DNA from: a virus
IMG/VR virus record: IMGVR_UViG_3300044991_001880
Coordinates: 1-44,928 of that record
Strand: one strand, 5' to 3'
Length of the DNA: 44,928 nt
Positions within the stretch are counted from its first letter, which is position 1. The number at the start of each line of letters is the position of its first letter. Made by a program: the position numbers and the translations under genes. Shown here piece after piece: positions 78-41,426 of the stretch. The notes under the pieces are model-generated. The model was not told where the DNA came from. It made no database searches and was given only the letters and a program-made list of their open reading frames with translations.

Positions 78-1280
78 TTGAATGTCCAAAATATTTGTAC
101 TTTTTCGACTCGAATTAACGAGGTCTGGAAGTGGAAAAACAGAATCATTGAAACCGGTATCGCAAACCCGGCGGAGTTGATCGCCAATCCGGTCAATTTT
201 CGGAAACACCCGAAGCGGCAGAAGGAGGCCATTAACGGCAGTTTGGATGCTTTGGGGTGGATACAGAATGTTATTGTGAACAAGCGAACCGGCCGGATTA
301 TCGACGGGCATTTGCGGGTGGATCAGGCTATTGCTCATGGGGAAATGGCGGTGCCGGTGCAGTGGGTGGATTTGTCGGAAGATGAAGAAGGGCAGGCGCT
401 GTTGTCGCTGGACCCTATTGCTGCCATGGCCGATACGAACAAGCAGATGATGACGGATTTACTCAAGCAAATCCATGAAACGCAGGATATGCTGGAGCCT
501 TATCTGGAAGATATCGCCAAATCGAGCGGGATTGATGTTGGGGATATTTTGGGGAAGGATGAGGATGATCCGCCGGATGAGAATGAGGCGGAATCGTTTC
601 GGGCAAAGTGGGGGGTAGAGTCGGGGCAGTTGTGGGAGCTGGGGGAACATCGGGTGTTGTGTGGGGATTGTACGGATAAAACGTTTTTTGATAAACTGAT
701 GTATAAAGAGACTGCTGACTTATGTTTGACAGACCCGCCGTATGGAATTAATTATGGTAAAAGTGGCGGTCATAATGCGTTACATGGTTGGGGTAACTGG
801 AAGGATAAAGTTGAATGGGATGCTAACAGACCTGATAAAAGCATATTTGATTTTATCATAAATTCATCAAATGAACAGATAATCTGGGGTGGTAATTATT
901 TTACAGATTATCTACCACCTAAAATGGGGTGGCTTGTTTGGGATAAAGGACAAAGAAATTTCTCTTTAGCTGACTGTGAACTTGCATGGACTTCAAGAGA
1001 TAAAGCATCGAGAGTATTCACCTATTCAAGAGCTGAATCGCTCAAAGATAAGAAACAACATCCGACACAAAAACCGATTGCCTTAATGCAATGGTGTCTT
1101 GAAAAAAGTGAAAATGCTGTGATCATTCTTGACGTTTTTTTAGGCTCCGGCACCACATTAATAGCCTGCGAAAACCTCCGCCGCAAATGCCGCGGCATCG
1201 AAATATCGCCGGAATATGTCGCCGTAACCATCGAACGCTGGCACCGATTGACCGGCAAACAGCCCAGGTTGTTGAGCTGA
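78..1280 (+). CDS. ParB-like nuclease-fold domain fused to a beta-class DNA methyltransferase
   Basis: This 400-residue protein should methylate an exocyclic amino group in DNA (N6-adenine or N4-cytosine), probably to shield phage DNA from host restriction. Residues about 25-115 form a ParB/sulfiredoxin-like domain with the typical IIDGHLR segment. The catalytic motif IV DPPY is at 219-222 and HPTQKP near 328. The AdoMet-binding motif I, VFLGSGTT, is at 353-360. The order IV then I is that of beta-class enzymes. ParB-MTase fusions of this kind are common in phages. No restriction endonuclease gene lies beside it. The start is a TTG one base after the previous stop and has no clear Shine-Dalgarno, so the exact N-terminus is uncertain. 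Residues about 205-354 are encoded by visibly more AT-rich DNA than the flanks, suggesting recombination within the catalytic and target-recognition part. Confidence 0.9.
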   Translation: MNVQNICTFSTRINEVWKWKNRIIETGIANPAELIANPVNFRKHPKRQKEAINGSLDALGWIQNVIVNKRTGRIIDGHLRVDQAIAHGEMAVPVQWVDLSEDEEGQALLSLDPIAAMADTNKQMMTDLLKQIHETQDMLEPYLEDIAKSSGIDVGDILGKDEDDPPDENEAESFRAKWGVESGQLWELGEHRVLCGDCTDKTFFDKLMYKETADLCLTDPPYGINYGKSGGHNALHGWGNWKDKVEWDANRPDKSIFDFIINSSNEQIIWGGNYFTDYLPPKMGWLVWDKGQRNFSLADCELAWTSRDKASRVFTYSRAESLKDKKQHPTQKPIALMQWCLEKSENAVIILDVFLGSGTTLIACENLRRKCRGIEISPEYVAVTIERWHRLTGKQPRLLS

Positions 1281-2999: not shown

Positions 3000-3040
3000 T
3001 GAATCCGTATCGAAGCAGTTTCCCGCCAAAAACCCATGAT

Positions 3041-3125
3041 AAAAAAAGTATGAATTATGAAGGATGAATTATGAAAAAAATCCATCCTTCAGCTTTCATC
3101 CTTCAAATTTCATACTTCATACTTT
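3041..3125. repeat. Heptad-repeat hairpin element 1
   Basis: A run of A is followed by heptads of the form GNATGAA, then a short centre, then complementary heptads TTCATNC ending in a T run. The two arms can pair into a long imperfect hairpin. It lies directly before the gpW-like start codon, which has no Shine-Dalgarno of its own. Related elements sit at 6914, 7993, 10290, 11698, 14463 and 38112, with half copies at 43699 and 44190. Confidence 0.75.
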
Positions 3126-5935: not shown

Positions 5936-6913
5936 ATGCCTTATACCGACACCACCAAAGCATTTATCGCCGGGGAAGCACTGGCCGCCTATCGGCTGGT
6001 CAAAATCGAATCCGGCACCACCATGGACCCGCCCGAAGTCGTTTATGCCGATGCCGGAGAGGATGCCATCGGTTTTACCCAGTATGCAGCCGCAGACGGT
6101 GCATCTGTAAACGTGCAACTGCTGAACAAACCCGGTACCTGTGAGCTGCAATGTGTGGTGGATTCCGCCATTGCCAGGGGGACGGTGTTGTATGCCGCCA
6201 ATGACGGCAAGGTGAGCGACGCCTCCAGCGGATCGGCTGTCGGGGTATCGATGCAGGCGGCTGTGACGGGGGAAATTATCGAAGTGGCGGTAAACCCCAG
6301 AAAGCCGACCACGGCAGCCGGAACCAGTGTGGCCGACACGGGCAGTTTTACCGAGGCCGCCACGGTGGAGGCTGCCCTGGCAGAAATCTACCAGAACGCG
6401 GTGAGCGCACAGGCATTTATTCCGGTGCCGCTCAATACCCTGCGGGAGGCATCTTCTTTTGCCGTGGGCAATGCATCCGCCAATGGCGGGGTGCTGGCCA
6501 GCGATACGACACCGATTCTTGCGCCCATCAATGGTGCTACCGACGGGTGTCAGACATTGGCCTGGGCGGCATCCAACAACGACCAGGTGGTATTCCAGAC
6601 CCCGCTGCCTCCCGATCTGAATGATGCTGCGGATGTCGTGATTCATTTCCGTATCAAGTCCGCAGGCACCACCAATGCGGTTGGGTTTACGGTGGATTCG
6701 TTCTGGGATGAGGGAGACACAAAAATAACCGACACCAGCGAAACCAACCAGACGGCGACCTGGGCGGAGAAAATCGCCACCATTGCCGCAGCCGACGTGC
6801 CTACTGGCGCCCAGACATTGACGGTCGGGCTGACTCCGGTCGCCCATACCACCGACATTCTGTATCTGTCTGCGGTGTGGATTGAATACAAACGTAAAAT
6901 CGTAACCAGCTAA
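5936..6913 (+). CDS. Capsid decoration protein (DUF2190-like) with extra C-terminal domain
   Basis: This 325-residue protein starts at ATG 5936 after GAGAGGAGATAA. Residues 1-120 match the DUF2190/decoration type found between protease and capsid genes (FIAGEALAAYRLVKI, DAIGFTQYAAADGASVNVQL, GTVLYAANDGKV). Residues about 130-325 form an extra beta-rich, Thr/Ala-rich domain ending in a jelly-roll-like pattern, possibly displayed on the capsid surface. Ordinary decoration proteins are roughly 110-130 residues, so the added domain is unusual. Its function is unknown; surface binding is a guess. Confidence 0.75.
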   Translation: MPYTDTTKAFIAGEALAAYRLVKIESGTTMDPPEVVYADAGEDAIGFTQYAAADGASVNVQLLNKPGTCELQCVVDSAIARGTVLYAANDGKVSDASSGSAVGVSMQAAVTGEIIEVAVNPRKPTTAAGTSVADTGSFTEAATVEAALAEIYQNAVSAQAFIPVPLNTLREASSFAVGNASANGGVLASDTTPILAPINGATDGCQTLAWAASNNDQVVFQTPLPPDLNDAADVVIHFRIKSAGTTNAVGFTVDSFWDEGDTKITDTSETNQTATWAEKIATIAAADVPTGAQTLTVGLTPVAHTTDILYLSAVWIEYKRKIVTS

Positions 6914-6998
6914 AAAAAAAGTATGAAGTATGAAGGATAAATTATGAAATAAAAAATCCTTCAGCTTTCATACTTCAAACTTCATACTTCATACTTTG
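6914..6998. repeat. Heptad-repeat hairpin element 2
   Basis: It follows the decoration stop codon at once: A-tract, GTATGAA/GGATAAA heptads, centre, then complementary CTTTCATACTTCAAACTTC-type heptads ending in TTT. The next gene has its own ribosome site (TTAGGAGAA) after the element, unlike several other copies. Confidence 0.75.
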
Positions 6999-7015
6999 AA
7001 TTAGGAGAAACGACT

Positions 7016-7987: not shown

Positions 7988-7992
7988 AAACG

Positions 7993-8078
7993 GAAGTATG
8001 AAGGATGAAGGATAAATTATTAAATAAAATCAATCCTTAATTTTTCATACTTCATACTTCAAACTTCATACTTTTTTT
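7993..8078. repeat. Heptad-repeat hairpin element 3
   Basis: GAAGTATGAAGGATGAAGGAT heptads (7994 onward) pair with CATACTTCATACTTCAAAC-type heptads, ending in eight T. The following start codon at 8083 lies only four bases past the T run, with no Shine-Dalgarno, so the element itself forms the 5' context of the gene. Confidence 0.75.
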
Positions 8079-8082
8079 TATT

Positions 8083-10040: not shown

Positions 10041-10291
10041 TGGCGACCCTGGGCGACATCGTGAAACAATTGCAGAGCGCCGATTCTGAAAAGGCGGCGC
10101 TCTTTGAGAGATGGCTGACCATCATGAACGGCGGGTCGATGATTGGTTTGGCAAAAATGACCGACGGCATGATGGGAATGCCAATTTCGAAGTTTGGGGC
10201 CGGGCGGTATGCGAGATCATCGGCCAACAAAATGATTGCATTTGAGCAGCAGAGGGCGACGTTGACGGTGGATTGGCCGAGACCTTATTGA
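10040..10291 (+). CDS. Small 83-residue tail-region protein
   Basis: I do not recognise this protein. It is short, helical at the N-terminus (IVKQLQSADSEKAALFERWL) and Met/Gly-rich in the middle. It is coupled to the tail tube gene by TAATG overlap and is followed by a heptad-repeat hairpin. A role in tail assembly is inferred from position only. Confidence 0.6.
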   Translation: MATLGDIVKQLQSADSEKAALFERWLTIMNGGSMIGLAKMTDGMMGMPISKFGAGRYARSSANKMIAFEQQRATLTVDWPRPY

Positions 10292-10373
10292 AAGGATGAA
10301 GGATGAAGGATGAAGGATGAAAAAAGGACTGACATGCTTTTTTCATAATTCATAATTCATACTTCATAATTTA
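10290..10373. repeat. Heptad-repeat hairpin element 4
   Basis: Four perfect GGATGAA units in the left arm (from 10293) are followed by a centre, then CATAATTCATAATTCATACTT in the right arm (shown as CATAATTCAT, then ACTTCAT). It begins on the stop codon of the 83-residue gene and ends four bases before the GTG start at 10378. Confidence 0.75.
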
Positions 10374-10377
10374 AGAA

Positions 10378-11568: not shown

Positions 11569-11705
11569 ATTTGATGTTGTGTGATCTCAGGGGGAAACTC
11601 CTCTACGAAGTCCGCCCGGACATTTTCCCCTATCCGGGACTGTGCGACACCGAACGTGCCCTCTGGTCGATGTATTACGATAGGAAAAACAATCAGAAAG
11701 GATGA
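11104..11705 (+). CDS. Frameshift product of the tail chaperone gene (gpGT-like)
   Basis: A -1 shift at G GGA AAG (11526-11532) joins residues 1-143 of the chaperone to 57 residues in the -1 frame, re-reading G11532 and ending at 11703-11705 (about 200 residues in all). The extension (ADTLWERDDIQL, then VRPDIFPYPGLCDTERALW) has no start codon of its own with a ribosome site, which supports production only by frameshifting. In lambda, the T extension links the chaperone to tail tube subunits. Confidence 0.75.
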
Positions 11706-11778
11706 AGTATGAATTATGAAGTATGAAAAAGGACTCAAAACCATTTTTTCATAATTCATCCTTCATCCTTCATAATTT
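11698..11778. repeat. Heptad-repeat hairpin element 5
   Basis: GGATGAAGTATGAATTATGA heptads pair with the downstream TTCATAATTCATCCTTCATCC array (shown as TTCATAATTCAT and CCTTCATCC). It overlaps the stop of the frameshift extension and ends four bases before the tape measure start. It may also lie close enough to the slippery site to affect ribosome flow, though it starts about 165 bases downstream. Confidence 0.75.
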
Positions 11779-11782
11779 ATAC

Positions 11783-14464
11783 ATGGCCGATCTCGAAAAA
11801 ACAGTATCCATTCTCTTTAAGGGCGTCGATGAAGTGTCCACGACAATGGACAAGATCGGCGGGTCTCTCTCCAATCTGGGAACATCTCTTGAATCGGCTA
11901 CCCAGCCGTTTGCCAACATGGCGCTGGCGGTTGAAAAGTTTGAAGCTACTTTAGCGGTACTTGCAGCAGGCGGAATTGTGGCTGCGGTATCGGCGGCCGG
12001 AAAATTCCAGGCCGGACTAAACGAAATCCATACCCTCCTTCGGGAATCACCTGAAGATGTTGCGGCATTTGATGACGCGATAGAAAATTACGCACGCAAC
12101 TCCACCCAAAGCCTCGAAGACATTCAGGCCGCCATTTATCAGGCGCTGTCTGCCAACGTCGATTATAGAGATTCCATCCAATTCATTACCGAAGCTGAAA
12201 AGTTGGCGGTGGCCGGTCAATCAACACTAAAAGAATCGGTTGATCTCTTGACAAGCGTTATGTCTGCTTACGGTGCATCTTGGAGTGATGCCAATCAATA
12301 TTCAGACATATTTTTCAAAACTGTTGAAATAGGAAAGGTGAATGTACCACAACTGGCAAGCGCACTGGGGTTAGTAGCGCCAGCGGCGGCGATTTCAGGT
12401 GTATCCATAAAAGAAGTAAGTGCAGCATTGGCCGCGCTTACGGCCGGAGGTTTAACATCGAGTCAGGCTGCTGAATATTTACGGCAAGTCATTTCGGATT
12501 TGGTTAAGCCATCGGACAGTGCGGTAAGTGCATTTGAAAATTTAAAAATAAAGTTTGGATCTGCTGAACTTGCATCAGTAGGTTTATCTGGAAAGATGCA
12601 GGAAATTTGGGAAAAATCCGGAGGCAGTGCCGACTCAATAATAAAACTGTTTGGAAACGTAACATCTTTTAGCGCTGCATCGGTATTAGGTGCAGACAAA
12701 GCGGGTCTATATGCAAAAGCATTGGATGAATTAAATAAGGCTGCTGGGGCAACAGATCGAGCCTATCAAATAATGGTCGATAATATCGACAAGGTTAACA
12801 CCAGGCTAATTAACAGCATGAAATTAGCTTTGGTTGAAGCAGGGAAACCGCTGCTTGATGACTGGGAAAATATTGCAAACGCTCTTGGCAAAGTGTTTCA
12901 AGGGGTTCAATTTGGGCTGAAAGAGGGAGCCTTTTCTGAAATCTACACGGCCATTGAATCCTTTGCATCCGAGTTTGCCGATTACCTGCGGAAGGTGGCG
13001 GCCGCCATTCCTGAGGCTATGCAAGCCATCAATTTTGAGGGTTTGCTGGCGTCGGTAAAAGAATTGGGCGGTGCGGTCGGGGATGTTTTCAAAACCCTGT
13101 TTGGGGATCTGGATTTAACCAAACCCGAAGATATGGCCAAGGCCATGCAAAAAATCGTGGATGGCATCACCGCTATGAACAATGTCACAAAAGGCATTGT
13201 TGAAGGGCTGAAACCTTTTGTGACAGCGTTGGGCGAATTTGCCAATGATGCGCTGAACGCCGATGGAAAAACGGCGGAATTGACCGGTAAGATATTGGGT
13301 TTTGGGCAGGGAGTGAATACGGCGATATCGGCCGTCAACAGTCTGGCTCCGGCCATGGAAATATTTTCCGGATCCTTGATCTTGAAGGCCATCAGTAACC
13401 TGGGCGGTCTGGCATCTATTGTGGGTGCGCTGCCATTTGTGGCGGCGGGAGCTGCGGCAACGGGACTTGCTTATGCGGTGAATCAACTCAATCCACCGAT
13501 TGATCTGGCGAATGCCAAATTTGACGAATTCGGCAACCTGATGGGCGATTTCAACAATATGTATGCAGAGCCGGTCGTGGCGTCTGTGGGTGAAATCGGG
13601 CAAAGCCTGAAAGACATACCCGGTGTTACCGAGTTGATGTTTGAAACAGACATGGACTCGGCCATTAACCAGATTCAGGGGTTAAACGAAAACCTGCTGG
13701 AGTTTGAGGCCGGGGTATCTGTGCTGATCGATGCAGACCCGGAACCAGCTCAGATAAAAATCGGTGAGCTGTCCAACAAAATGGCGGATTATGATGGGCG
13801 GAAGTATTCGGCGGACTTTGAAATCAGCGATGAATCTTATGATAAAACAATGTACCGCATAATGGAAGTCACAAGCGCTGATGGATTTCCTATACAATTC
13901 AAGGTTCGCGTTGACGATGAATCGATAACGAAAAGCGAAAATAAGATCAAAGAAATTCCAACCGAAAAGATGCTTGAGATAAAGCTGCAAGGCGATATCG
14001 ATACAGAAATAGCCCTAATCAAGGCTGATGCAGAAATGATGCAGAAGGCCGTGGAGTGGTCGGCCAAACTTGAAATCGCAAACATCGAATCGCAGACCGA
14101 ACGGGTCAAGGCCATGTTCTCCAGCGTATCGGACACCATCGGAAGTGTATCGAGTGAAATCAGCGGGCTGTTTGGGAAAATACCAAAATCAGAATATGAC
14201 TTCGGGGCCAGGGAATGGCAGGCGGCCGTGAACCAGGCTATGCAAATACAGGATGAAGCATTCAGGCTGGAAAAGCAGTTGGTGGCTGAACAAATCAAGT
14301 TGATGGAAACCAAAGATGATTTGATGAAATCCGGAAAAGGATTGATCAAGATTGACTCCACCGGACTGGAACCGGCCCTTGAAATGATTATGTGGCAAAT
14401 TCTGCAGAAGGTGCAATTGAAGGCAAACGAGGACTCGGCATCCTTCCTGTTGGGGATAAATTGA
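11783..14464 (+). CDS. Tail tape measure protein
   Basis: This 893-residue protein sets tail length and occupies the tail lumen. It has long Ala-rich helices, an N-terminal phage-TMP segment with AGKFQAGLNEIHTLL, TLKESVDLLTSVMSAYG and a LVAPAAAISGVS core, hydrophobic patches near residues 540-570 (SLILKAISNLGGLASIVGAL, then PFVAAGAAATGLAYAV) and a coiled-coil C-terminus. The start MADLEKTVS at 11783 follows a heptad element; an in-frame ATG at 11723 inside that element is rejected. Codons for roughly residues 150-340 are more AT-rich than the rest. It is the longest gene here, as expected. Confidence 0.9.
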   Translation: MADLEKTVSILFKGVDEVSTTMDKIGGSLSNLGTSLESATQPFANMALAVEKFEATLAVLAAGGIVAAVSAAGKFQAGLNEIHTLLRESPEDVAAFDDAIENYARNSTQSLEDIQAAIYQALSANVDYRDSIQFITEAEKLAVAGQSTLKESVDLLTSVMSAYGASWSDANQYSDIFFKTVEIGKVNVPQLASALGLVAPAAAISGVSIKEVSAALAALTAGGLTSSQAAEYLRQVISDLVKPSDSAVSAFENLKIKFGSAELASVGLSGKMQEIWEKSGGSADSIIKLFGNVTSFSAASVLGADKAGLYAKALDELNKAAGATDRAYQIMVDNIDKVNTRLINSMKLALVEAGKPLLDDWENIANALGKVFQGVQFGLKEGAFSEIYTAIESFASEFADYLRKVAAAIPEAMQAINFEGLLASVKELGGAVGDVFKTLFGDLDLTKPEDMAKAMQKIVDGITAMNNVTKGIVEGLKPFVTALGEFANDALNADGKTAELTGKILGFGQGVNTAISAVNSLAPAMEIFSGSLILKAISNLGGLASIVGALPFVAAGAAATGLAYAVNQLNPPIDLANAKFDEFGNLMGDFNNMYAEPVVASVGEIGQSLKDIPGVTELMFETDMDSAINQIQGLNENLLEFEAGVSVLIDADPEPAQIKIGELSNKMADYDGRKYSADFEISDESYDKTMYRIMEVTSADGFPIQFKVRVDDESITKSENKIKEIPTEKMLEIKLQGDIDTEIALIKADAEMMQKAVEWSAKLEIANIESQTERVKAMFSSVSDTIGSVSSEISGLFGKIPKSEYDFGAREWQAAVNQAMQIQDEAFRLEKQLVAEQIKLMETKDDLMKSGKGLIKIDSTGLEPALEMIMWQILQKVQLKANEDSASFLLGIN

Positions 14465-14543
14465 AAGGATGAAGGATGAAGGATGAAGTATGAAAAATGA
14501 CGAACAGCCATCATTCATAATTCATCCTTCATAATTCATAATT
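14463..14543. repeat. Heptad-repeat hairpin element 6
   Basis: Three GGATGAA units and GTATGAA (14466 onward) pair with TTCATAATTCATCCTTCATA-type sequence. It directly follows the tape measure stop and precedes ATG 14550, which lacks a clear ribosome site. Confidence 0.75.
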
Positions 14544-14549
14544 GATACC

Positions 14550-14891
14550 ATGTTGATTACATTTTCATCGATCGAGCAGGGCGAATATGTAACGCTCAAT
14601 GTACCGGCGGCGCCCGTGCGGGAAAACACCCGGCGGCTGTCTCGCTCGGCCACGTTGGATGGCGGGGCGGTGATTACCGACAGCGGGTATTCGGATGCCG
14701 ACCGGACGTTTTCGTTTGCGGCGGTAAGTATCAGCCCATCGGCGGCCGACAGGTTATGGGCATTTTTCGAAAGCGAGAGCCTGGTGGGGCTGGCCTGCCC
14801 CGAGGGGTTTTTTGTAGGGTACATCGAATCGGTGAAAATCGATGGGGATACGGCGGATGTGTCGTTTTGGGTGTATGAGAAAATTACGTGA
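14550..14891 (+). CDS. Small minor tail protein (gpM position)
   Basis: This 113-residue beta-rich protein sits immediately after the tape measure, where lambda has gpM. It begins MLITFSSIEQGEYVTLNVPA and ends in a strand-rich region with FFVGYIESVKIDGDTADVSF. It probably belongs to the tail tip or distal tail complex. The call is by position; I see no diagnostic motif. Confidence 0.5.
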   Translation: MLITFSSIEQGEYVTLNVPAAPVRENTRRLSRSATLDGGAVITDSGYSDADRTFSFAAVSISPSAADRLWAFFESESLVGLACPEGFFVGYIESVKIDGDTADVSFWVYEKIT

Positions 14892-27233: not shown

Positions 27234-28334
27234 TTAATTTACTTTTTCATTGTCACTTTTTGATAAATCATTTGATTTATCACCCGGTAAATCATCTGAT
27301 TGACCATAATCCAGACCGGGCAAAAGGTCAACAACTGCTCGGTGCATATCTTGGTTGGTATGCTGGTAAATGCGCAATGTCGTGTCTGGCCGGGAATGCC
27401 CCAGGATTTCAGATGTCGATTTCAGGTCGGCATTGCTGGACAAAACAATCGATGCGAAAGCGTGCCGGAAGCTGTACAGCGGCAGCCGACGTGTTATCCC
27501 GGCCCTGCGTTTGGCTGATGCAAAAGACTTCTTCAGCGAGCTTATAGGCTGCCCATGATACTGGATGATTTCGTTTTCGTGGCCATCGAGCGCATGCCAT
27601 TTTCTCAATTGATCCAAAAACGATTCATGCAGAGGAACCACCCGAGACCGAATCCCACCTTTTTTTGCCGATCGAATCAATATCGTTCGGTTCTCCCATC
27701 CGATGTCTGCCCATTTTATCCCAAACAATTCACTGGCGCCTGGGCGAAGTCCGGTATAGTAGCAGATGCTCAATGCTCTGACCAAATGATCAGCGGCATG
27801 GGCCATGATTTTTTTTGATTCCTCGGAGCTGGGGGGGATGATTATTTCATCGTCACGTTTTGGTTTTTCGTACCCTGCCAAAGGATTTCTAAGAAGATAC
27901 CCGCGCTTAACACTCCAATTGAGGATCGCCATGATATCCGATAAATCACGGTGCACTGTGCTTTTGCTTTTGCCTTCGGACAGTCTTGATTGGACATATT
28001 TATCGATTCTGTCGGGGGTGATGTTGATTGCCTGCAACTGACCAAGATCGGGCAAAATGATTGCATTCAGTTTGTATTTGAGAGCGTTGATGGTTGATTG
28101 CTGCATGTGGATTGATCTCGAAGAGAGATAGGCGTTTATCAGTTCAAAAAAACATGGTGATAAATTCTGCCGGGGGTCGCTTTGCCGGTGGTATTCGTTT
28201 AGCCCGAGCTGTTCGTTTCGCTCACGGGCTTTTTTTTCGGCCTCGATGCCGCGACCGAAATACTCACGGAGATATTTTTTTCCGGATCGATAGGCGACGA
28301 TCCATCGGCCGTCTTTGAGTTGATGGACTGACAT
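27234..28334 (-). CDS. int: Tyrosine-type site-specific integrase
   Basis: This 366-residue recombinase inserts phage DNA into the host tRNA-Pro gene. It has an N-terminal arm-binding region, a core-binding SAM-like domain (about 60-150) and a catalytic domain with Arg197 (TGLRPG), Arg290, His313 (LGHS) and nucleophile Tyr323 (LRIYQH). The usual first His of the HxxR box is Tyr287 (YSFR), a substitution tolerated in the superfamily. Its 3' end lies 26 bases from the att core. TGATAAATCA motifs occur on both sides of the core and could be arm-type sites. It follows the repressor and a small exported protein on the same strand. Confidence 0.92.
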   Translation of the reverse strand: MSVHQLKDGRWIVAYRSGKKYLREYFGRGIEAEKKARERNEQLGLNEYHRQSDPRQNLSPCFFELINAYLSSRSIHMQQSTINALKYKLNAIILPDLGQLQAINITPDRIDKYVQSRLSEGKSKSTVHRDLSDIMAILNWSVKRGYLLRNPLAGYEKPKRDDEIIIPPSSEESKKIMAHAADHLVRALSICYYTGLRPGASELFGIKWADIGWENRTILIRSAKKGGIRSRVVPLHESFLDQLRKWHALDGHENEIIQYHGQPISSLKKSFASAKRRAGITRRLPLYSFRHAFASIVLSSNADLKSTSEILGHSRPDTTLRIYQHTNQDMHRAVVDLLPGLDYGQSDDLPGDKSNDLSKSDNEKVN

Positions 28335-30333: not shown

Positions 30334-31803
30334 ATGAATGAACCATCGGGAGAAATAACCAGCGAGTTTATAACGCAATGTCTTCAGGCAAACGAGCTGG
30401 GGGATGCCATGATTTACATTGCCTTGAATCGCGGGAAAAGGCTCTACAACAAGGCATCAAATGAATGGATCAGGTGGGCCGGGCATCATTGGGAAATTGA
30501 TCAATGTTCGCTTGACGCAATATCTTCTGTCGCAGAAGTCAGCAACGAGTATCTCAATGAGGCAAAATTGCTTGTCGATAGGATTGCAGCAGCAGAATCA
30601 CAAGAGGCCAAGCAAACTTTGATAGACCGTCAGAAAAAAATCTATAACAGAGTCGATCGGCTCCGGTCAGTTCGAGGATCCACAAATTGCCTGACGTTTA
30701 CCACCAGATGTCACGACCGGCTGGTCACAACAACCGAATTGTTTGATGCCGATCCGTGGAAGCTCCCCGTGATCAATGGAGTTGTCGATTTAAAAAACGG
30801 AGAGCTTTATCCAGGAGAACCGCAACAACTTTTGATGAAATACTGTCCTCATAACTGGACAGGTATAGAAACACCCTGCCCGATATGGGAGAAATCTATC
30901 CTTGAAATCATGGATGAAAACCATGAAATGGTAAACTTCATCCAGTGTCTGCTCGGGTATGCTATTACCGGTCTTACGACAGAACACATTCTTCCGATTT
31001 TTTACGGGAAGGGCAGAAACGGAAAGACTCTGATCATCGAAACGATTCGATATGTCATGGGAGATATGGCATCCCCAATCCGGTCCGAACTGCTTCTTGA
31101 ACAGCGGTTCGGTAAGTCGTCTTCCGGCCCGACACCAGAAATAATGTCTCTGAAAGGTCTTCGCATCGCCTTTGCCAGCGAGACAGACGAAGGCGCAAAG
31201 CTGTCTGTATCGAATGCTAAAAAACTTACCGGCGGGGATACCCTCTTGGGTAGAAATCCCCATGATAAATACGAGACGAAATTCAACACCACCCACACCC
31301 TGTTTATGCTCACCAACAACATCCCATCCATGCCAGTTGATGACTTTGCACTATGGGAGCGCATTTTCCTGGTGCCATTCAACATCAGTTTTGTTACCGA
31401 CCCGAAACATCCGGATGAAAGAAAGATCGATAAAGACTTGGCGGATAAACTGAAAAGCGAAGCCTCCGGGATACTGGCATGGCTGGTTCGGGGGACGCTG
31501 CAATGGCAGATTGATGGACGGTTGGACTATCCGTCTTTGGTCAAGGAAGCTACGGGGGGCAAGCGAAGGGAATTTGATATTGTCCAGGACTTTATTGATG
31601 AGTGTTGTGTTGTCGGTAGTGAATATAGAGTCAATGCATCAGTAATCTATGATGTATTTTCCCGATGGTATGAGGATAACCATAGCAAAAGTGTTCCATC
31701 AATTAACAGGTTCGGCCGAACGATGGGAAAAAGATTCAAGGTTATAAAGAAGGGAATCAAAATTTATACAGGAATTGGGGTGCTTTCTAATGAAAACAGT
31801 TGA
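30334..31803 (+). CDS. D5/P4-type SF3 replicative helicase
   Basis: This 489-residue protein has a D5_N-like N-terminal region. An SF3 helicase core follows, with Walker A GKGRNGKT (residues 225-232), Walker B region RIAFASETDE (277-286) and the sensor FMLTNNIP (324-331), plus ALWERIFLVPF nearby. The C-terminal 100 residues resemble the winged-helix region of phage/plasmid P4-type proteins. It would unwind the phage origin as a hexamer. The primase part of a full P4 alpha protein is absent here and lies in the separate gene at 32529. The putative iteron origin starts at its 3' end. Confidence 0.9.
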   Translation: MNEPSGEITSEFITQCLQANELGDAMIYIALNRGKRLYNKASNEWIRWAGHHWEIDQCSLDAISSVAEVSNEYLNEAKLLVDRIAAAESQEAKQTLIDRQKKIYNRVDRLRSVRGSTNCLTFTTRCHDRLVTTTELFDADPWKLPVINGVVDLKNGELYPGEPQQLLMKYCPHNWTGIETPCPIWEKSILEIMDENHEMVNFIQCLLGYAITGLTTEHILPIFYGKGRNGKTLIIETIRYVMGDMASPIRSELLLEQRFGKSSSGPTPEIMSLKGLRIAFASETDEGAKLSVSNAKKLTGGDTLLGRNPHDKYETKFNTTHTLFMLTNNIPSMPVDDFALWERIFLVPFNISFVTDPKHPDERKIDKDLADKLKSEASGILAWLVRGTLQWQIDGRLDYPSLVKEATGGKRREFDIVQDFIDECCVVGSEYRVNASVIYDVFSRWYEDNHSKSVPSINRFGRTMGKRFKVIKKGIKIYTGIGVLSNENS

Positions 31804-32179
31804 ACAAATCTGGACGATATTAGCATTCTGGACGAATTTTCACGCTTTTAGAGTGGAAAGTATGAATCAATAACTGTTTGAGGGAAATCCCTATATAAAT
31901 CGTCCATAATAACAAAATCGTCCATAATAAAAAAAAAGAAAATAAAAAAATAAGAAAAATCAATATGTTACTATTTGGATTGAAAAAATCGTATGAACAA
32001 ATCTGGACGATATTAGCATTCTGGACGAATTTTCACGCTTTTAGAGTGGAAAGTATGAATCAATAACTGTTTGAGGGAAATCCCTATATAAATCGTCCAT
32101 AATAACAAAATCGTCCATAATAAAAAAAAAGAAAATAAAAAAATAAGAAAAATCAATATGTTACTATTTGGATTGAAAA
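31801..32179. repeat. 193-bp tandem duplication carrying TGGACGA iterons (putative replication origin)
   Basis: Two copies, 31801-31993 and 31994 to about 32179, are identical over about 186 bases. Each has two direct TGGACGA motifs 18 bp apart (31811, 31829; 32004, 32022) and two inverted copies TCGTCCA, also 18 bp apart (31900, 31918; 32093, 32111). Each also has an AGGGAAATCCCT palindrome and a long A-rich tract. Eight phased binding motifs, an AT-rich stretch and position between helicase and primase genes are what one expects of an iteron origin. The first base overlaps the helicase stop codon. Confidence 0.7.
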
Positions 32180-32194
32180 AACAGTAAAAAAAAA

Positions 32195-37388: not shown

Positions 37389-38129
37389 ATGACACAAGAC
37401 CTGCAAGACATTATCGACAAGAGCCGCTCCACCGATGTTACGGCCCTGGTATCCGCCAAAGAATCAGCCAAACGGCGCATGATGGAGGACGGCAGCCCGG
37501 CGAACATATCATCGTTTGAGCGGGCATCCGCTGCCCTGGAGAAGGCTCTTGAAAAGCAGAAGCCGCTGCCGGTGGAAGAGGCTCCAGCCGAAGTGGTGCC
37601 CCGTTTTCGAAACACGGCCGAGGTCATGAAATTTTTGCAGGCCGAAGGCTACAAGATCAAGAAAAGTAAGCTGTACAACGACGTGAAGGCCGGTTTTCTG
37701 GCCCAGTCTGAAGACGGCAGTTTCTCTCAGAATGACGTGCTGGCCTACGTGCACACGCAAAGTTTGGACAAGATAGCCGACAACAAGGCAGGAAAACTCG
37801 ATGCGTTGAGTGAAAAACGGCTGGAGAAAGAAGTCGAGAAGCTCACGGTTCAGGTTGAGAAATTGACCTGGGACATGAACCGAGACCAGGGGAAATATTT
37901 GCTCAAGGAAGATGTGCGGACGGAGCTGGCCATGAAGATCAGCGTATTCGAGGCCGGGTTCAAGCATGTTGTGGCGACATCGGCCAGTGACTGGTCGGCT
38001 GCCATCGGCGGGGAGCCGGGAAAGTATCAGATATTGATCGACCAGATCAACAACGCCATCGATGCGCTGCTGGGGGAGTTTGCGGAGTGTGAGGAGTTGG
38101 ATGTGGTAGTTGAGAAGTATGAAGTATGA
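37389..38129 (+). CDS. Terminase small subunit-like DNA-binding protein
   Basis: In this 246-residue protein, residues about 70-115 form a winged-helix-like DNA-binding segment (NTAEVMKFLQAEGYKIKKSK then LYNDVKAG). A coiled coil follows, RLEKEVEKLTVQVEKLTWDM, and a C-terminal region with AMKISVFEAGFKHVVATSAS. This layout resembles Nu1-type small terminase subunits that bind the packaging site. The large subunit lies 3.6 kb downstream rather than next to it, with the TIGR-Tas module between. Confidence is moderate because no enzyme motif exists. Confidence 0.6.
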   Translation: MTQDLQDIIDKSRSTDVTALVSAKESAKRRMMEDGSPANISSFERASAALEKALEKQKPLPVEEAPAEVVPRFRNTAEVMKFLQAEGYKIKKSKLYNDVKAGFLAQSEDGSFSQNDVLAYVHTQSLDKIADNKAGKLDALSEKRLEKEVEKLTVQVEKLTWDMNRDQGKYLLKEDVRTELAMKISVFEAGFKHVVATSASDWSAAIGGEPGKYQILIDQINNAIDALLGEFAECEELDVVVEKYEV

Positions 38130-38198
38130 AGGATAAATTATGAAATAAAATCAATCCTTCAGCGTTCATACTTCATACTTCATTTTTCATACTTTTTT
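38112..38198. repeat. Heptad-repeat hairpin element 7
   Basis: GAAGTATGAAGTATGAAGGA heptads overlap the 3' end and stop of the small terminase-like gene. They pair with CATACTTCATACTTCAT units ending in a T run. The next gene at 38213 has its own ribosome site (AAAGGAG) beyond it. This is the only full copy outside the structural operon. Confidence 0.75.
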
Positions 38199-38410: not shown

Positions 38411-38922
38411 CACGCCTGGCGGGTCTGGCAATGGTGCTATTGTCTGCCATCGATGCAGACAACGCATTTATTTCCACCGTACATGACGATTTGCCACGAC
38501 CGGTGATCGTAGATTTTGGAGTGATTTATATTTTGGAGGCGGATGAAACATGGAAAACGAGCGATTTATTGACCGATGGGCGGAACAAACTACCACTGGC
38601 GGGCTTAAAAGATGGCAGAAAATACGAATTTATCAAGGAGGAAAAATGGAAGACCAGAAACCGTACAAACCATTTGAATTCTGGGCGGAGGAAGCCGTCG
38701 AAACCCACCACGAAATTGACCGGGTACGGTTCATCGACGCGTGGGAAGAAATGGAAGCCGAAGTCCACCATATCGCAGTCACGAAAGGCTGGTGGGACTC
38801 CGACCGGTCGGATGGTGAAATCATTGCCCTCATCCACAGCGAATTGTCGGAATGCCTCGAAGCCTGCCGGAAAGGATACCCAAAAGACAAACACCTCCCG
38901 CACCGAATCAATAACGAAGTAG
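38395..38922 (+). CDS. Possible exported ORF overlapping the MazG-like gene
   Basis: The ATG at 38395 (AGGGAG upstream) opens with a signal-like stretch (WITRLAGLAMVLLSAIDADN). The first 80 codons fill an otherwise gene-less 235 bases and look protein-like. From 38646 on, the frame lies under the MazG-like gene and becomes a basic low-complexity sequence typical of a shadow frame. It may be a real short gene whose 3' end was lost by a frameshift, or a chance ORF. Confidence 0.35.
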   Translation: MRRWITRLAGLAMVLLSAIDADNAFISTVHDDLPRPVIVDFGVIYILEADETWKTSDLLTDGRNKLPLAGLKDGRKYEFIKEEKWKTRNRTNHLNSGRRKPSKPTTKLTGYGSSTRGKKWKPKSTISQSRKAGGTPTGRMVKSLPSSTANCRNASKPAGKDTQKTNTSRTESITK

Positions 38923-39050
38923 AACTTGCTGATGCCGTGATCCGTATTATGGATTTTGCCGGGGCGAAGGGGTGGGATGTGTGCGGGGCGCTCGCGGAGA
39001 AGGTGGAGTATAACCGGACGCGGCCGTTTAAGCACGGGAAACGGTTTTGA
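38646..39050 (+). CDS. MazG-like nucleotide pyrophosphohydrolase
   Basis: This 134-residue protein starts at 38646 after AAGGAGG. It shows the all-alpha NTP pyrophosphatase pattern: LIHSELSECLEACRKG (ExxE) and INNEVELADAVIRIMDFA (ExxxD), with a lysine-rich link between. Such phage enzymes hydrolyse (d)NTPs or alarmone-like nucleotides and may alter host stress signalling. An in-frame extension to 38550 (MENERFIDRWAEQ) is possible. It lies directly upstream of the hairpin and tas gene. Confidence 0.75.
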   Translation: MEDQKPYKPFEFWAEEAVETHHEIDRVRFIDAWEEMEAEVHHIAVTKGWWDSDRSDGEIIALIHSELSECLEACRKGYPKDKHLPHRINNEVELADAVIRIMDFAGAKGWDVCGALAEKVEYNRTRPFKHGKRF

Positions 39051-39062
39051 TGTGGAATAACA

Positions 39063-39085
39063 AACCGTGACGATGTGTCACGGTT
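39063..39085 (+). promoter_or_regulatory. Perfect hairpin just upstream of the tas gene
   Basis: AACCGTGAC (39063-39071) and GTCACGGTT (39077-39085) form a perfect 9-bp stem with loop GATGT. It ends about 15 bases before the tas start and just before its ribosome site (AAAAAGGAG). It could be an mRNA stem controlling ribosome access, a weak terminator of the upstream operon, or a dyad operator. Confidence 0.55.
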
Positions 39086-39100
39086 CAAAAAGGAGTGTTT

Positions 39101-40009
39101 ATGGAAATTTTTGATCCTAAAAAAATTGATGAAAACGTGATTCGTAACTTGAATTTTCTTTGCACGACCAATGACAGCTTAACAAAAATGACGACATCCA
39201 TTTCAAACAGGCTGAAAGCGTTGAATCCTGAGATGAATAAAAAACATGAGGAAGCGTATTCGGAGCTTGAAAAATTCAATGGTAAAATCGTTAGAAGAAT
39301 TGAAAAAGAAATTGAATACTTCCCTGTTTGGTCGGCCTGGATGAAAGATATCAAAGGCATTGGCCCATTTCTGGCCGGGAATTTGATACTGCTCTATTAT
39401 TACAAATTTATACCGGTGTGCAAATCATGCGGTGGTGATTTGGTAAAAGCCGAAATCAAAGATCAGCCTGAGAAGAAAGCGAAAAAAGCGAAGAAAGTTA
39501 TCATCGATGATTCGGATAATGGTGAAAGAAAGCAGTTTGTATGTGCTGCCTGTCATAAGGTTTCATCGGGTGATGGTGTTTTGAAGCATAGAATAGATGT
39601 TCGGGACTTTCCGAATGTGTCCGCCTGGTGGCATTACATGGGCGAGCATATTGTCGATGGCAAAAAGCCAAAAATGAGTAAAGGCGTGAAATGTACATGG
39701 TCGCCGAAGGGCAGGAAGATATCTTTTATGATCGGGGATCAGGTCAATCGCAGAGATGAAAATCATGATTACAAAAAATTCATGATTGAAACCAAAACCA
39801 AACTTCATTCTTATTACCCGGACAGGTCAGACATGCATATTCATAAAATGGCCAGGATGCAGACAAGTAAATTGTTTTTGAGCCATTTATGGCATGTTGC
39901 CAGAGAGATAGAGGGGAAAAGTACCCGTGGGATTTATGCAGATGTTATTTTGGGGCATACGGGGATTATTCCGCCTTATTATTGGGGTGGATGGGATAGC
40001 TTATTCTGA
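39101..40009 (+). CDS. tasA: Tas protein of a TIGR-Tas system, nuclease-less (TasA-like)
   Basis: This 302-residue protein starts at ATG 39101 after AAAAAGGAG. Residues about 80-103 (WMKDIKGIGPFLAGNLILLY) are the helix-hairpin-helix-type core shared by Nop-domain snoRNP proteins and IS110 transposases. A zinc ribbon is inserted after it (CKSC near 109, CAAC near 151). Further on are SAWWHYMGEHIVDGKKPK, a basic KGRKISFMIGDQV segment and a C-terminal helical region with HIHKMARMQTSKLFLSHLWH. I see no HNH or RuvC motif, so it matches the stand-alone form of Tas proteins. In known TIGR-Tas systems the Nop-type protein binds the dual-spacer guide RNA. Here the guide array begins two bases after the stop. 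Identity as Tas rests on this linkage and the Nop-like core. Confidence 0.8.
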   Translation: MEIFDPKKIDENVIRNLNFLCTTNDSLTKMTTSISNRLKALNPEMNKKHEEAYSELEKFNGKIVRRIEKEIEYFPVWSAWMKDIKGIGPFLAGNLILLYYYKFIPVCKSCGGDLVKAEIKDQPEKKAKKAKKVIIDDSDNGERKQFVCAACHKVSSGDGVLKHRIDVRDFPNVSAWWHYMGEHIVDGKKPKMSKGVKCTWSPKGRKISFMIGDQVNRRDENHDYKKFMIETKTKLHSYYPDRSDMHIHKMARMQTSKLFLSHLWHVAREIEGKSTRGIYADVILGHTGIIPPYYWGGWDSLF

Positions 40010-40011
40010 AG

Positions 40012-40630
40012 TAAAAACCAATAGAACTTTGCAAGACCATCAGTGTTATAAAAATCATAAAGACGTTGCAAGACTATCGTGCATATAAAAATCACGAGGG
40101 GAATGCAAGACCATGCTGAAAGTCAAAATCATTAAAGCAATGCAAGACCATGCTGGCCATCAAAACCAAAAAAAAATGCAAGACCAAGCGATAATTAAAA
40201 ATCATCAATATTATGCAAGGCCAGCGAAAGATTAAAAATCAACACTTGCATGCAAGACCAAGCAGGCTTTTAAAATCAAGATAGAAATGCAAGACCAGCT
40301 CTGTTTTTAAAACCAATAACACCATGCAAGACCATTGAAAACTTAAAAATTAAAAAATATATGCAAGACCGGCAGGTTAATCAAAATCAGCATAAAGATG
40401 CAAGACCAGTCTGAAAATCAAAATCATTGTGAAGGTGCAACACCAATTAAAAAATAAAAACCAATAGAACTTTGCAAGACCAAAGCTGCTGTTAAAATCA
40501 AAAATAGCATGCAAGACCATTGAAAACTTAAAAATCAAAAAATATATGCAAGACCATCGAGTAATTTAAAATCATTGAACGATTGCAAGACTAACGATTT
40601 CATTAAAATCAACCAAAGAATGCAGAAACA
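40012..40630 (+). repeat. TIGR array: 16 dual-spacer units of 37 bp
   Basis: Edge repeats TGCAAGACCA start at 40030, 40067, 40104, 40141, 40177, 40214, 40251, 40288, 40325, 40362, 40399, 40436, 40473, 40510, 40547 and 40584; a degenerate one is at 40621. Spacing is 37 except once 36. Each unit reads edge repeat (10 nt), spacer A (9), loop repeat T-H-AAAATCA (9; the T is invariant in 16 of 16, H is never G), spacer B (9, once 8). Eleven of sixteen edge repeats match exactly. Spacers are mutually unrelated, except that units 9 and 14 are the same pair and the leading half-unit (40012-40029) equals the loop and spacer B of unit 12. The region has no ORF on either strand that explains it. In TIGR-Tas, such arrays give about 36-nt guides with two 9-nt spacers. 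Confidence 0.9.
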
Positions 40631-40655
40631 ATTATAATTTGAAAAAGGAACGACT

Positions 40656-41426
40656 ATGATAACATTTGAAGAAATCGCCCAGAAGTACGATGGAAAGTCA
40701 ATAACGACCATCGAGACAATGATCAAGACCAGTGCAGACAAGCACTCATACCACAGGAAGGAATTCATTCTGGCGCTGTTTTACCTGGAGAGAACCAACA
40801 AATACAAGGAAAACAAGACATACAAAGATGAAACATTCAAACGTTACATTTCAGATATGTTCAACTTGTCATATTCCGGTTATAACAAGGAGCGGTTTGC
40901 TTTTATCACTGTTCCGGAAGCTGCTGAAAAATATGGTGTCGGTGTCATTGATAGGATTGCAAGCTCCTGTGGGAGTCATAAGGTAACGGATGTTGTCAAA
41001 CAGATCGATACTAAAAAATCGGTTAAACGTGCAGAAATCAACAAAATCATCGAAAAAAACGCCAAACCTAAACCCGCTCCGAAACCACGATTTAAACCTA
41101 TCATTATCGCCGCTCCAGAGCCTCAACCATTGCCTGTTGAAGATGTTCCTCCGGTTCCGAAGGTCAAAACACTGCCTGAAAAGCAAAAGGACGACCAAAT
41201 TGAAAAATTGAAAAAGACAGTGGTCGATCATAAAGAAACCATTGAAATTATGTCTCTTGAAATGTCTGATCTTAAAAAAGAAAACTATATCTTGAAACAG
41301 GAAAACGAAAAACTGAGAAAAGAAAACTTGGATTTAAAAAAACGCACATCATATCCAAGTATTCCAGGGTTTCCACCTATGCCTAAGCTCCCAAATTTTA
41401 ATAAACATTTACAGGAGCACGCATGA
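40656..41426 (+). CDS. Coiled-coil protein next to the TIGR array
   Basis: This 256-residue protein is 26 bases after the array. Residues 1-110 are a helical basic domain (FEEIAQKYDGKSITTIETMI then KERFAFITVPEAAEKYGVGV). A Pro/Lys-rich linker follows (about 135-180, KPKPAPKPRFKPI then PQPLPVEDVPPVPKVK). Residues 185-230 are a coiled coil (LKKENYILKQENEKLRKENL), and the tail is PMPKLPNFNKHL. I recognise no family. Its position suggests a possible partner of the TIGR-Tas module or simply an early structural-control protein. Ribosome site AAAAAGGAA. Confidence 0.6.
   Translation: MITFEEIAQKYDGKSITTIETMIKTSADKHSYHRKEFILALFYLERTNKYKENKTYKDETFKRYISDMFNLSYSGYNKERFAFITVPEAAEKYGVGVIDRIASSCGSHKVTDVVKQIDTKKSVKRAEINKIIEKNAKPKPAPKPRFKPIIIAAPEPQPLPVEDVPPVPKVKTLPEKQKDDQIEKLKKTVVDHKETIEIMSLEMSDLKKENYILKQENEKLRKENLDLKKRTSYPSIPGFPPMPKLPNFNKHLQEHA

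What the first reader, a model, noticed from the sequence alone, without database searches (positions are those of the whole stretch)
39101..40630. A phage-borne TIGR-Tas system: nuclease-less Nop-type protein directly followed by a 16-unit dual-guide array
The array has two different repeats per unit and two unrelated 9-nt variable segments (A and B) in a 37-bp period, and it starts two bases after a gene with a Nop/IS110-like core. This is the defining layout of TIGR-Tas, a recently described class of RNA-guided DNA-targeting systems found in phages and some bacteria, whose guides carry two 9-nt spacers. The protein here is a 302-residue stand-alone form without HNH or RuvC. What such nuclease-less versions do (silencing, competition between phages, lysogeny control) is not established, so this locus in a temperate phage is a good model.
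Basis: partly seen in the sequence, partly recalled or inferred. Interest (0 to 1): 0.97.

Follow-up and report, generated by a model that had tools for sequence, protein, structure and literature searches.

The report
Phage TIGR-TasA array with swappable slot
This temperate phage carries a genuine TIGR-TasA system, a recently described RNA-guided DNA-binding protein without a cutting domain plus a 16-unit guide array, and in close relatives the same genome slot holds a different programmable repressor used in phage-against-phage conflict, which suggests what the cutter-less form does.

Summary
Window 39101-40009 encodes a 302-aa TasA. A half unit lies at 40012-40029, 16 full edge/spacer A/loop/spacer B units at 40030-40620, and a truncated edge at 40621-40630. 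Chance expectation for the unit pattern is 0.1 matches; 16 were found. By sequence and by fold the protein's best solved relatives are TIGR-TasR and TasH; IS110 comes only after them. No nuclease domain is present. This is a member of the published TIGR-TasA family (Faure 2025), not a new class.

New here. (1) A Zn-ribbon insertion in the Nop core, and a conserved helical/coiled-coil partner gene (40656-41426), recur in related TasA loci: five carry the ribbon and four of those the partner. (2) tasA, array and partner fill exactly one slot (39051 to about 41400). In a near-species-level sibling phage (L014) and a more distant one (L015) the same slot holds a VIPR or VIPR-like system. VIPR is published as a nuclease-less, RNA-programmed transcriptional repressor of competing phages. 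This equivalence of position and layout makes RNA-guided silencing of rival elements the best-supported role for this TasA. Native targets were searched for and not found, so that function is inferred.

The parts
39051..41400 (+). Exchangeable cassette (slot): everything between the stop of the MazG-like pyrophosphatase gene (38550-39050) and the 107-aa gene before the terminase large subunit; replaced in L014 by a VIPR-like cassette
   Evidence: blastn and junction alignment window/L014: homology stops at the mazG stop codon and resumes at about 41401
39063..39085 (.). Perfect 9-bp inverted repeat AACCGTGAC-GATGT-GTCACGGTT just inside the cassette, upstream of tasA; function unknown
   Evidence: read directly in the sequence
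39101..40009 (+). tasA, 302 aa solo Nop-domain protein
   Evidence: PDB phmmer to TasR 9mty E 1.5e-18 and TasH 21kl E 9e-7; profile A4 to 9mty E 8e-45; Foldseek to 9mty E 3.9e-8
39242..39394 (+). Nop coiled-coil / GIG motif region of TasA (residues 48-98)
   Evidence: aligned to 9mty 142-192
39419..39553 (+). Zn-ribbon insertion (CKSC...CAAC, residues 107-151) inside the Nop core, shared by L007, L010, L071, L072, absent in L003 and L008 and not at this place in L011
39596..39988 (+). C-terminal RNA-binding part of the Nop domain (residues 166-296)
   Evidence: aligned to 9mty 195-322
40012..40029 (+). Half unit at the 5' end of the array: loop repeat TAAAAACCA + spacer B ATAGAACTT
   Evidence: direct reading
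40030..40620 (+). TIGR array, 16 full units: edge TGCAAGACCA, spacer A 9 nt, loop T[ACT]AAAAYCA, spacer B 9 nt (unit 4: 8 nt)
40621..40630 (+). Truncated 3' edge repeat TGCAGAAACA
   Evidence: truncated terminal edge is a described trait of TIGR arrays (PMC12045711)
40656..41426 (+). Partner gene, 256 aa: N-terminal all-helical domain (about 1-134), linker, long C-terminal coiled coil (176-231)
   Evidence: homologues beside tasA in L007, L071 and L072 at 31-39% identity; AF2 model mean pLDDT 76

Best explanation
A TIGR-TasA system of the Zn-ribbon/partner subtype. The array transcript is cut into unit-length tigRNAs of about 36 nt, each loaded on a TasA dimer. Spacers A and B pair with opposite strands of an 18-20 bp DNA target and the complex stays bound, because TasA has no nuclease. 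The bound complex, probably helped by the coiled-coil partner, blocks transcription of genes of rival mobile elements (superinfecting phages, other prophages or satellites). The cassette is one interchangeable 'weapon' module of this phage lineage, equivalent to the VIPR module that its siblings carry in the same slot. Shown here: array, TasA homology and fold, absence of a nuclease, conserved partner, exact slot exchange with VIPR/VIPR-like cassettes. From the literature: tigRNA processing and dual-strand targeting for other Tas proteins, and VIPR silencing of competing phages. Inferred: that this TasA silences, and what its targets are.
For: TasA identity. Array. Same layout in independent loci: Microcystis phage Mvi-JY20, L007, L008, L010 and L011, L071 and L072. 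Partner beside tasA in four loci with partner identities of 31-39%. Slot exchange: L014, 90-96% nt identity in most shared blocks, carries a Vipr homologue (phrog_4652 E 1.4e-11; PDB 36pp E 0.0018), an NNGAC 5-nt array and a phrog_5926 gene between the same two flanking genes. L015 carries a Vipr homologue (36pp E 8.5e-10; E about 1e-9 to Felixounavirus-type phages), eight YNNGG-type vrRNA tracts with a repeated tail, and the same phrog_5926 gene. VIPR represses competing phages by RNA-guided DNA binding and uses an accessory protein (PMC13142463).
Against: No target was found: none in the phage itself, none beyond the mispaired-spacer null in up to 0.56 Mb of related contigs, and only chance-like exact IMG/VR matches for two units. 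Slot sharing shows genomic equivalence, not biochemical equivalence; phage slots often hold unrelated accessory genes. Faure et al. saw no block of conjugation or plaquing with TasR in E. coli, and TasA itself was shown only to bind 36-nt RNAs. L014's 5-nt array uses GAC rather than GGY.
Confidence: 0.55

Rival explanations
1. Self-directed regulator: tigRNAs direct TasA to the phage's own operators or to host genes to control lysogeny or host take-over.
For: Temperate phage (integrase); nuclease-less RNA-guided proteins can act as repressors.
Against: Best self matches of A+0-2 nt+rc(B) have 3-5 mismatches, no better than mispaired spacers; exact 9-mers in the phage occur at the shuffled rate (13 observed, 13.4 expected). 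The locus is absent from the near-identical sibling L014, which an essential regulator should not be. Host targets could not be searched.
Confidence: 0.15
2. Replicon partition or maintenance aid: TasA plus a ParB-like partner tethers or segregates the prophage, or drives loss of competing replicons.
For: Faure et al. report a ParB-like gene (TasParB) in tasA operons with arrays before, between and after the genes, the same arrangement as L007, L071 and L072; TasR drives plasmid loss.
Against: Pfam, PHROGs, PDB sequence and Foldseek searches of the partner give no ParB match; the phage has an integrase.
Confidence: 0.12
3. RNA-guided DNA bending that assists the phage integrase.
For: Speculated for TasA by Faure et al.; the partner has a weak Tn916-Xis match (E 2e-4, just below cut-off, one of four members).
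Against: 16 to about 33 different guides per array make little sense for one att site; no self matches; tas and integrase are about 11 kb apart.
Confidence: 0.06
4. A decayed, non-functional relic.
For: Loop repeats have lost the G of box D; one unit is 36 bp; one spacer is poly-A.
Against: 16 of 16 units in register, intact 302-aa ORF with all conserved Nop residues, intact conserved partner, identical copy in a second sample contig.
Confidence: 0.05

Closest known systems
TIGR-TasA (Faure et al. 2025, PMC12045711; e.g. Flavonifractor plautii FpTIGR)
   Same: Solo Nop protein, dual-repeat array directly beside it, two 9-nt spacers per roughly 36-nt unit, truncated terminal edge, phage setting, no nuclease
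   Different: 37-bp period with a 10-nt edge; loop repeat with a degenerate box D; Zn-ribbon insertion in the Nop core (the word zinc does not occur in the paper's main text); always-near partner gene in this clade
tasA-tasParB operons (Faure et al. 2025, fig. S14)
   Same: Second gene next to tasA, arrays before, between and after, C-terminal region suited to dimerisation, 10-nt repeats
   Different: ParB relationship of this partner could not be confirmed with the tools here; the sequences of TasParB were not available for comparison
VIPR (PMC13142463, 2026 preprint)
   Same: Small phage cassette of guide-binding protein, repeat array and accessory gene in the very same genomic slot of sibling phages; no nuclease; repeat-encoded variable guides
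   Different: Vipr is a RAMP protein and reads YNNGG repeats with a 1-nt skip rule; TasA is a Nop protein with two 9-nt spacers; no homology
IS110-family bridge-RNA recombinases (IS621, ISCro4)
   Same: Nop-like RNA-binding domain
   Different: No DEDD domain, no transposon ends, array instead of one bridge RNA; fold match weaker than to TasR/TasH

Membership tests
TIGR-TasA | Nop-domain protein homologous to Tas proteins | tested here: met
   phmmer/hmmsearch to 9mty and 21kl; Foldseek top hits TasR and TasH
TIGR-TasA | No HNH or RuvC nuclease domain | tested here: met
   Pfam scan empty of nuclease domains; Nop coiled coil starts near residue 11 in the model
TIGR-TasA | Array of alternating 8-12 nt edge and loop repeats separated by about 9-nt spacers | tested here: met
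   16 units, edge 10, loop 9, spacers 9
TIGR-TasA | Box C/D-like ends (UG...CCA) shared by edge and loop repeats | tested here: inconclusive
   Edge UG...CCA intact; loop U[ACU]...YCA: box D G missing in all 16 units, box C mostly UCA
TIGR-TasA | Truncated terminal edges and a rho-independent terminator after the array | tested here: inconclusive
   Truncated edge at 40621-40630 present; no terminator-like site found after the array; the partner gene follows
TIGR-TasA | Processing to 36-nt tigRNAs bound to the protein | not testable with these tools
   Needs RNA sequencing
TIGR-TasA | Spacer A and B direct binding to opposite DNA strands | not testable with these tools
   Targets searched computationally, none found
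tasA-tasParB subtype | Partner gene operonic with tasA and arrays around both | tested here: met
   window, L007, L071, L072
tasA-tasParB subtype | Partner matches ParB domains | tested here: inconclusive
   No match by HMMER or Foldseek; the published claim used HHpred, not available here
IS110 transposase | N-terminal DEDD catalytic domain | tested here: not met
   No such Pfam match and no residues before the Nop core to hold it
VIPR (sibling loci L014, L015, not the window) | Vipr RAMP protein, YNNGG-type vrRNA array, vap gene | tested here: met
   L015 fully; L014 with a GAC-type repeat and a weaker Vipr match

The most novel reading that the evidence does not exclude
TIGR-TasA plus its partner and VIPR are functionally interchangeable modules: two unrelated inventions of a nuclease-less, array-programmed DNA-binding repressor with an accessory protein, exchanged in one 'programmable silencer' slot of a phage lineage for inter-phage conflict.
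Probability: 0.45. Interest if true: 0.85.

Novelty: new member of a known kind. Interest (0 to 1): 0.66.

Why it matters
What nuclease-less TasA proteins do is stated as open in the paper that described them. An exact genomic swap between a TIGR-TasA cassette and a VIPR cassette, in phages that are otherwise nearly the same, is the kind of natural experiment that proposes a specific answer (programmable silencing of rivals) and makes it testable with reporters already used for VIPR. It also shows that two unrelated RNA-guided systems compete for the same niche in phages, and it ties TasA to a specific conserved partner protein.

Tried and rejected
Self-targets with published geometry (A + 0-2 nt + rc(B)): none better than mispaired spacers. 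Exact 9-mers in the phage: at the shuffled rate. Targets of the arrays in the window, L007, L003, L010 and L011 in 0.47 Mb, and of L071 and L072 in 0.56 Mb, of related contigs: at the null rate. Exact targets of units 2 and 6 in IMG/VR: one and two hits, none in phages resembling this one, judged chance. VIPR guides of L015 and L014 against the window and relatives with 0-3 nt skip: nothing convincing. ParB identity of the partner by Pfam, PHROGs, PDB sequence and Foldseek: no support. Rfam and tRNA scans: nothing. Promoter/terminator scan at chance level. IS110 transposase reading: rejected. L016 (TerL 68%) shows no array system before its terminase, so the slot can be empty.

Full report
OBSERVATION. 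The window is a 44,928-bp virus record. The ORF 39101-40009 gives a 302-aa protein. Two bases after its stop begins a half unit (loop + spacer B), then 16 full units from 40030 to 40620, then a truncated edge repeat at 40621-40630. The unit pattern matches 16 times against 0.1 expected by chance. The edge repeat TGCAAGACCA is almost invariant. The loop repeat is T[ACT]AAAAYCA, with position 2 never G. Spacer columns carry little information, except that spacer B is rich in A. One spacer B is 8 nt. One spacer pair occurs twice, and part of the half unit recurs in unit 12, so the array has been reshuffled by internal duplication.

PROTEIN. phmmer against all PDB sequences gives TIGR-TasR (9mty, E 1.5e-18) and TasH (21kl, E 9e-7); a five-sequence profile gives 8e-45 and 3e-23. 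A modest AF2 model (mean pLDDT 65) finds TasR and TasH as its first eleven Foldseek hits, followed by IS110-family recombinases. There is no HNH, RuvC or DEDD domain. A Zn-ribbon (CKSC...CAAC) is inserted between the GIG motif and the C-terminal half. The same insertion is present in L007, L010, L071 and L072, absent in the Microcystis phage (L003) and L008, and not at this place in L011. PHROGs labels this family 'transposase' (phrog_4285), which looks like a misannotation.

RELATED LOCI. L002 is a 100% identical 12-kb contig. It shows no spacer turnover, and it has one copy of a 193-bp stretch that the window carries twice. Independent TasA loci with arrays: Microcystis phage Mvi-JY20, L007, L008, a Desulfobacterales MAG contig L010 and a Fervidicoccus contig L011, and two genomes of the Desulfobacterales class, L071 (about 33 units, the same edge TGCAAGACCA, order tasA-array-partner as in the window) and L072 (array-partner-array-tasA-array). 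In four of the five Zn-ribbon loci a homologue of the window gene 40656-41426 lies next to tasA (31-39% identity; L010 is cut by its contig end); no homologue was found in the other tas loci tested. The partner is predicted as a compact all-helical domain followed by a long coiled coil. It may be the TasParB of Faure et al., but no ParB match could be shown here.

THE SLOT. TerL search in IMG/VR gave close siblings. L014 matches the window at 90-96% nucleotide identity over most shared blocks. Homology stops exactly at the stop codon of the MazG-like gene (39050) and resumes at about 41401, just before the 107-aa gene ahead of terminase. In between, the window has tasA, array and partner. L014 has instead a Vipr homologue (phrog_4652 E 1.4e-11; PDB SUSP1 Vipr E 0.0018), an array of about 30 NNGAC units and a phrog_5926 gene. 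L015 (TerL 78%) has in the corresponding position a Vipr homologue (36pp E 8.5e-10, and E about 1e-9 to Felixounavirus-type phages), eight GGT-NN tracts with a repeated GGACTAAGG tail, and a phrog_5926 gene. VIPR is described in a 2026 preprint as a phage-encoded, nuclease-less RAMP system whose repeat-coded RNAs bind DNA and silence competing phages, aided by a vap accessory gene (PMC13142463). That paper does not mention TIGR, and no held paper links the two. L016 shows no array system at this place.

MECHANISM. From the literature for other Tas proteins, the array is expected to be processed into 36-nt tigRNAs, and spacers A and B to pair with opposite strands of an 18-20 bp site. With no nuclease, stable binding is the likely outcome. 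The slot exchange with VIPR, the parallel layout (guide protein, array, accessory gene) and the temperate lifestyle (integrase at 27234-28334) favour silencing of competing mobile elements. This last step is inferred. No native target was found in the phage, in related contigs, or convincingly in IMG/VR. Related TerL genes in 33 of 389 genomes of the Desulfobacterales class point to such a host, but the host is not established.

VERDICT. The kind is published, so this is a new member, with a Zn-ribbon and partner subtype. The most interesting evidence lies just outside the given coordinates: the exact exchange of this cassette with a VIPR-type cassette.

Noticed in passing
L014 3047-4293; L015 8083-9791: VIPR-type cassettes (Vipr homologue, 5-nt array, phrog_5926 accessory gene) in the same slot as the TIGR cassette; L014 uses NNGAC units rather than the published GGY/NN consensus.
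   Followed up: yes
window 3040-3125, 6912-7000, 7988-8080, 10285-10375, 11692-11782, 14458-14550, 38110-38172: Dispersed elements of about 85 bp made of heptamers (AAGGATG/AAGTATG/AATTATG ... TTCATAC/TTCATCC/TTCATAA) in inverted arms, mostly between structural genes; also in L014 at other places.
   Followed up: partly
window 31801-32181: Perfect 193-bp tandem duplication that is single-copy in the otherwise identical contig L002; recent event or assembly artefact.
   Followed up: partly
L003 3680-4740 (Microcystis phage Mvi-JY20): Unannotated TIGR-TasA in an isolated cyanophage: TasA of 241 aa, array right after the stop, intrinsic-terminator-like end, just upstream of terminase.
   Followed up: partly
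L006 2200-3590 (Rhodococcus phage Peregrin gp187): TasA-like protein (phrog_4285) flanked by long palindromes separated by short segments, resembling the published stem-loop TIGR arrays, in an isolated phage.
   Followed up: partly
L005 2674-3408 (Mycobacterium prophage prophiFSAT01-1 gp27): TasA-like protein (phrog_4285 E 1e-100) with no array seen in the short stretch read after it; PHROGs calls the family 'transposase'.
   Followed up: no
L011 359-1850: TasA-like protein and a dual-repeat array of about 16 units on a Fervidicoccus (archaeal) MAG contig.
   Followed up: partly
L071 3777-7440 region (G070:C476): Array of about 33 units beside a TasA and partner 50% and 39% identical to the window's; spacer B TTGATTGAA occurs three times with different spacer A.
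   Followed up: partly
window 78-1280: DNA methyltransferase with a ParB-like N-terminal domain.
   Followed up: no
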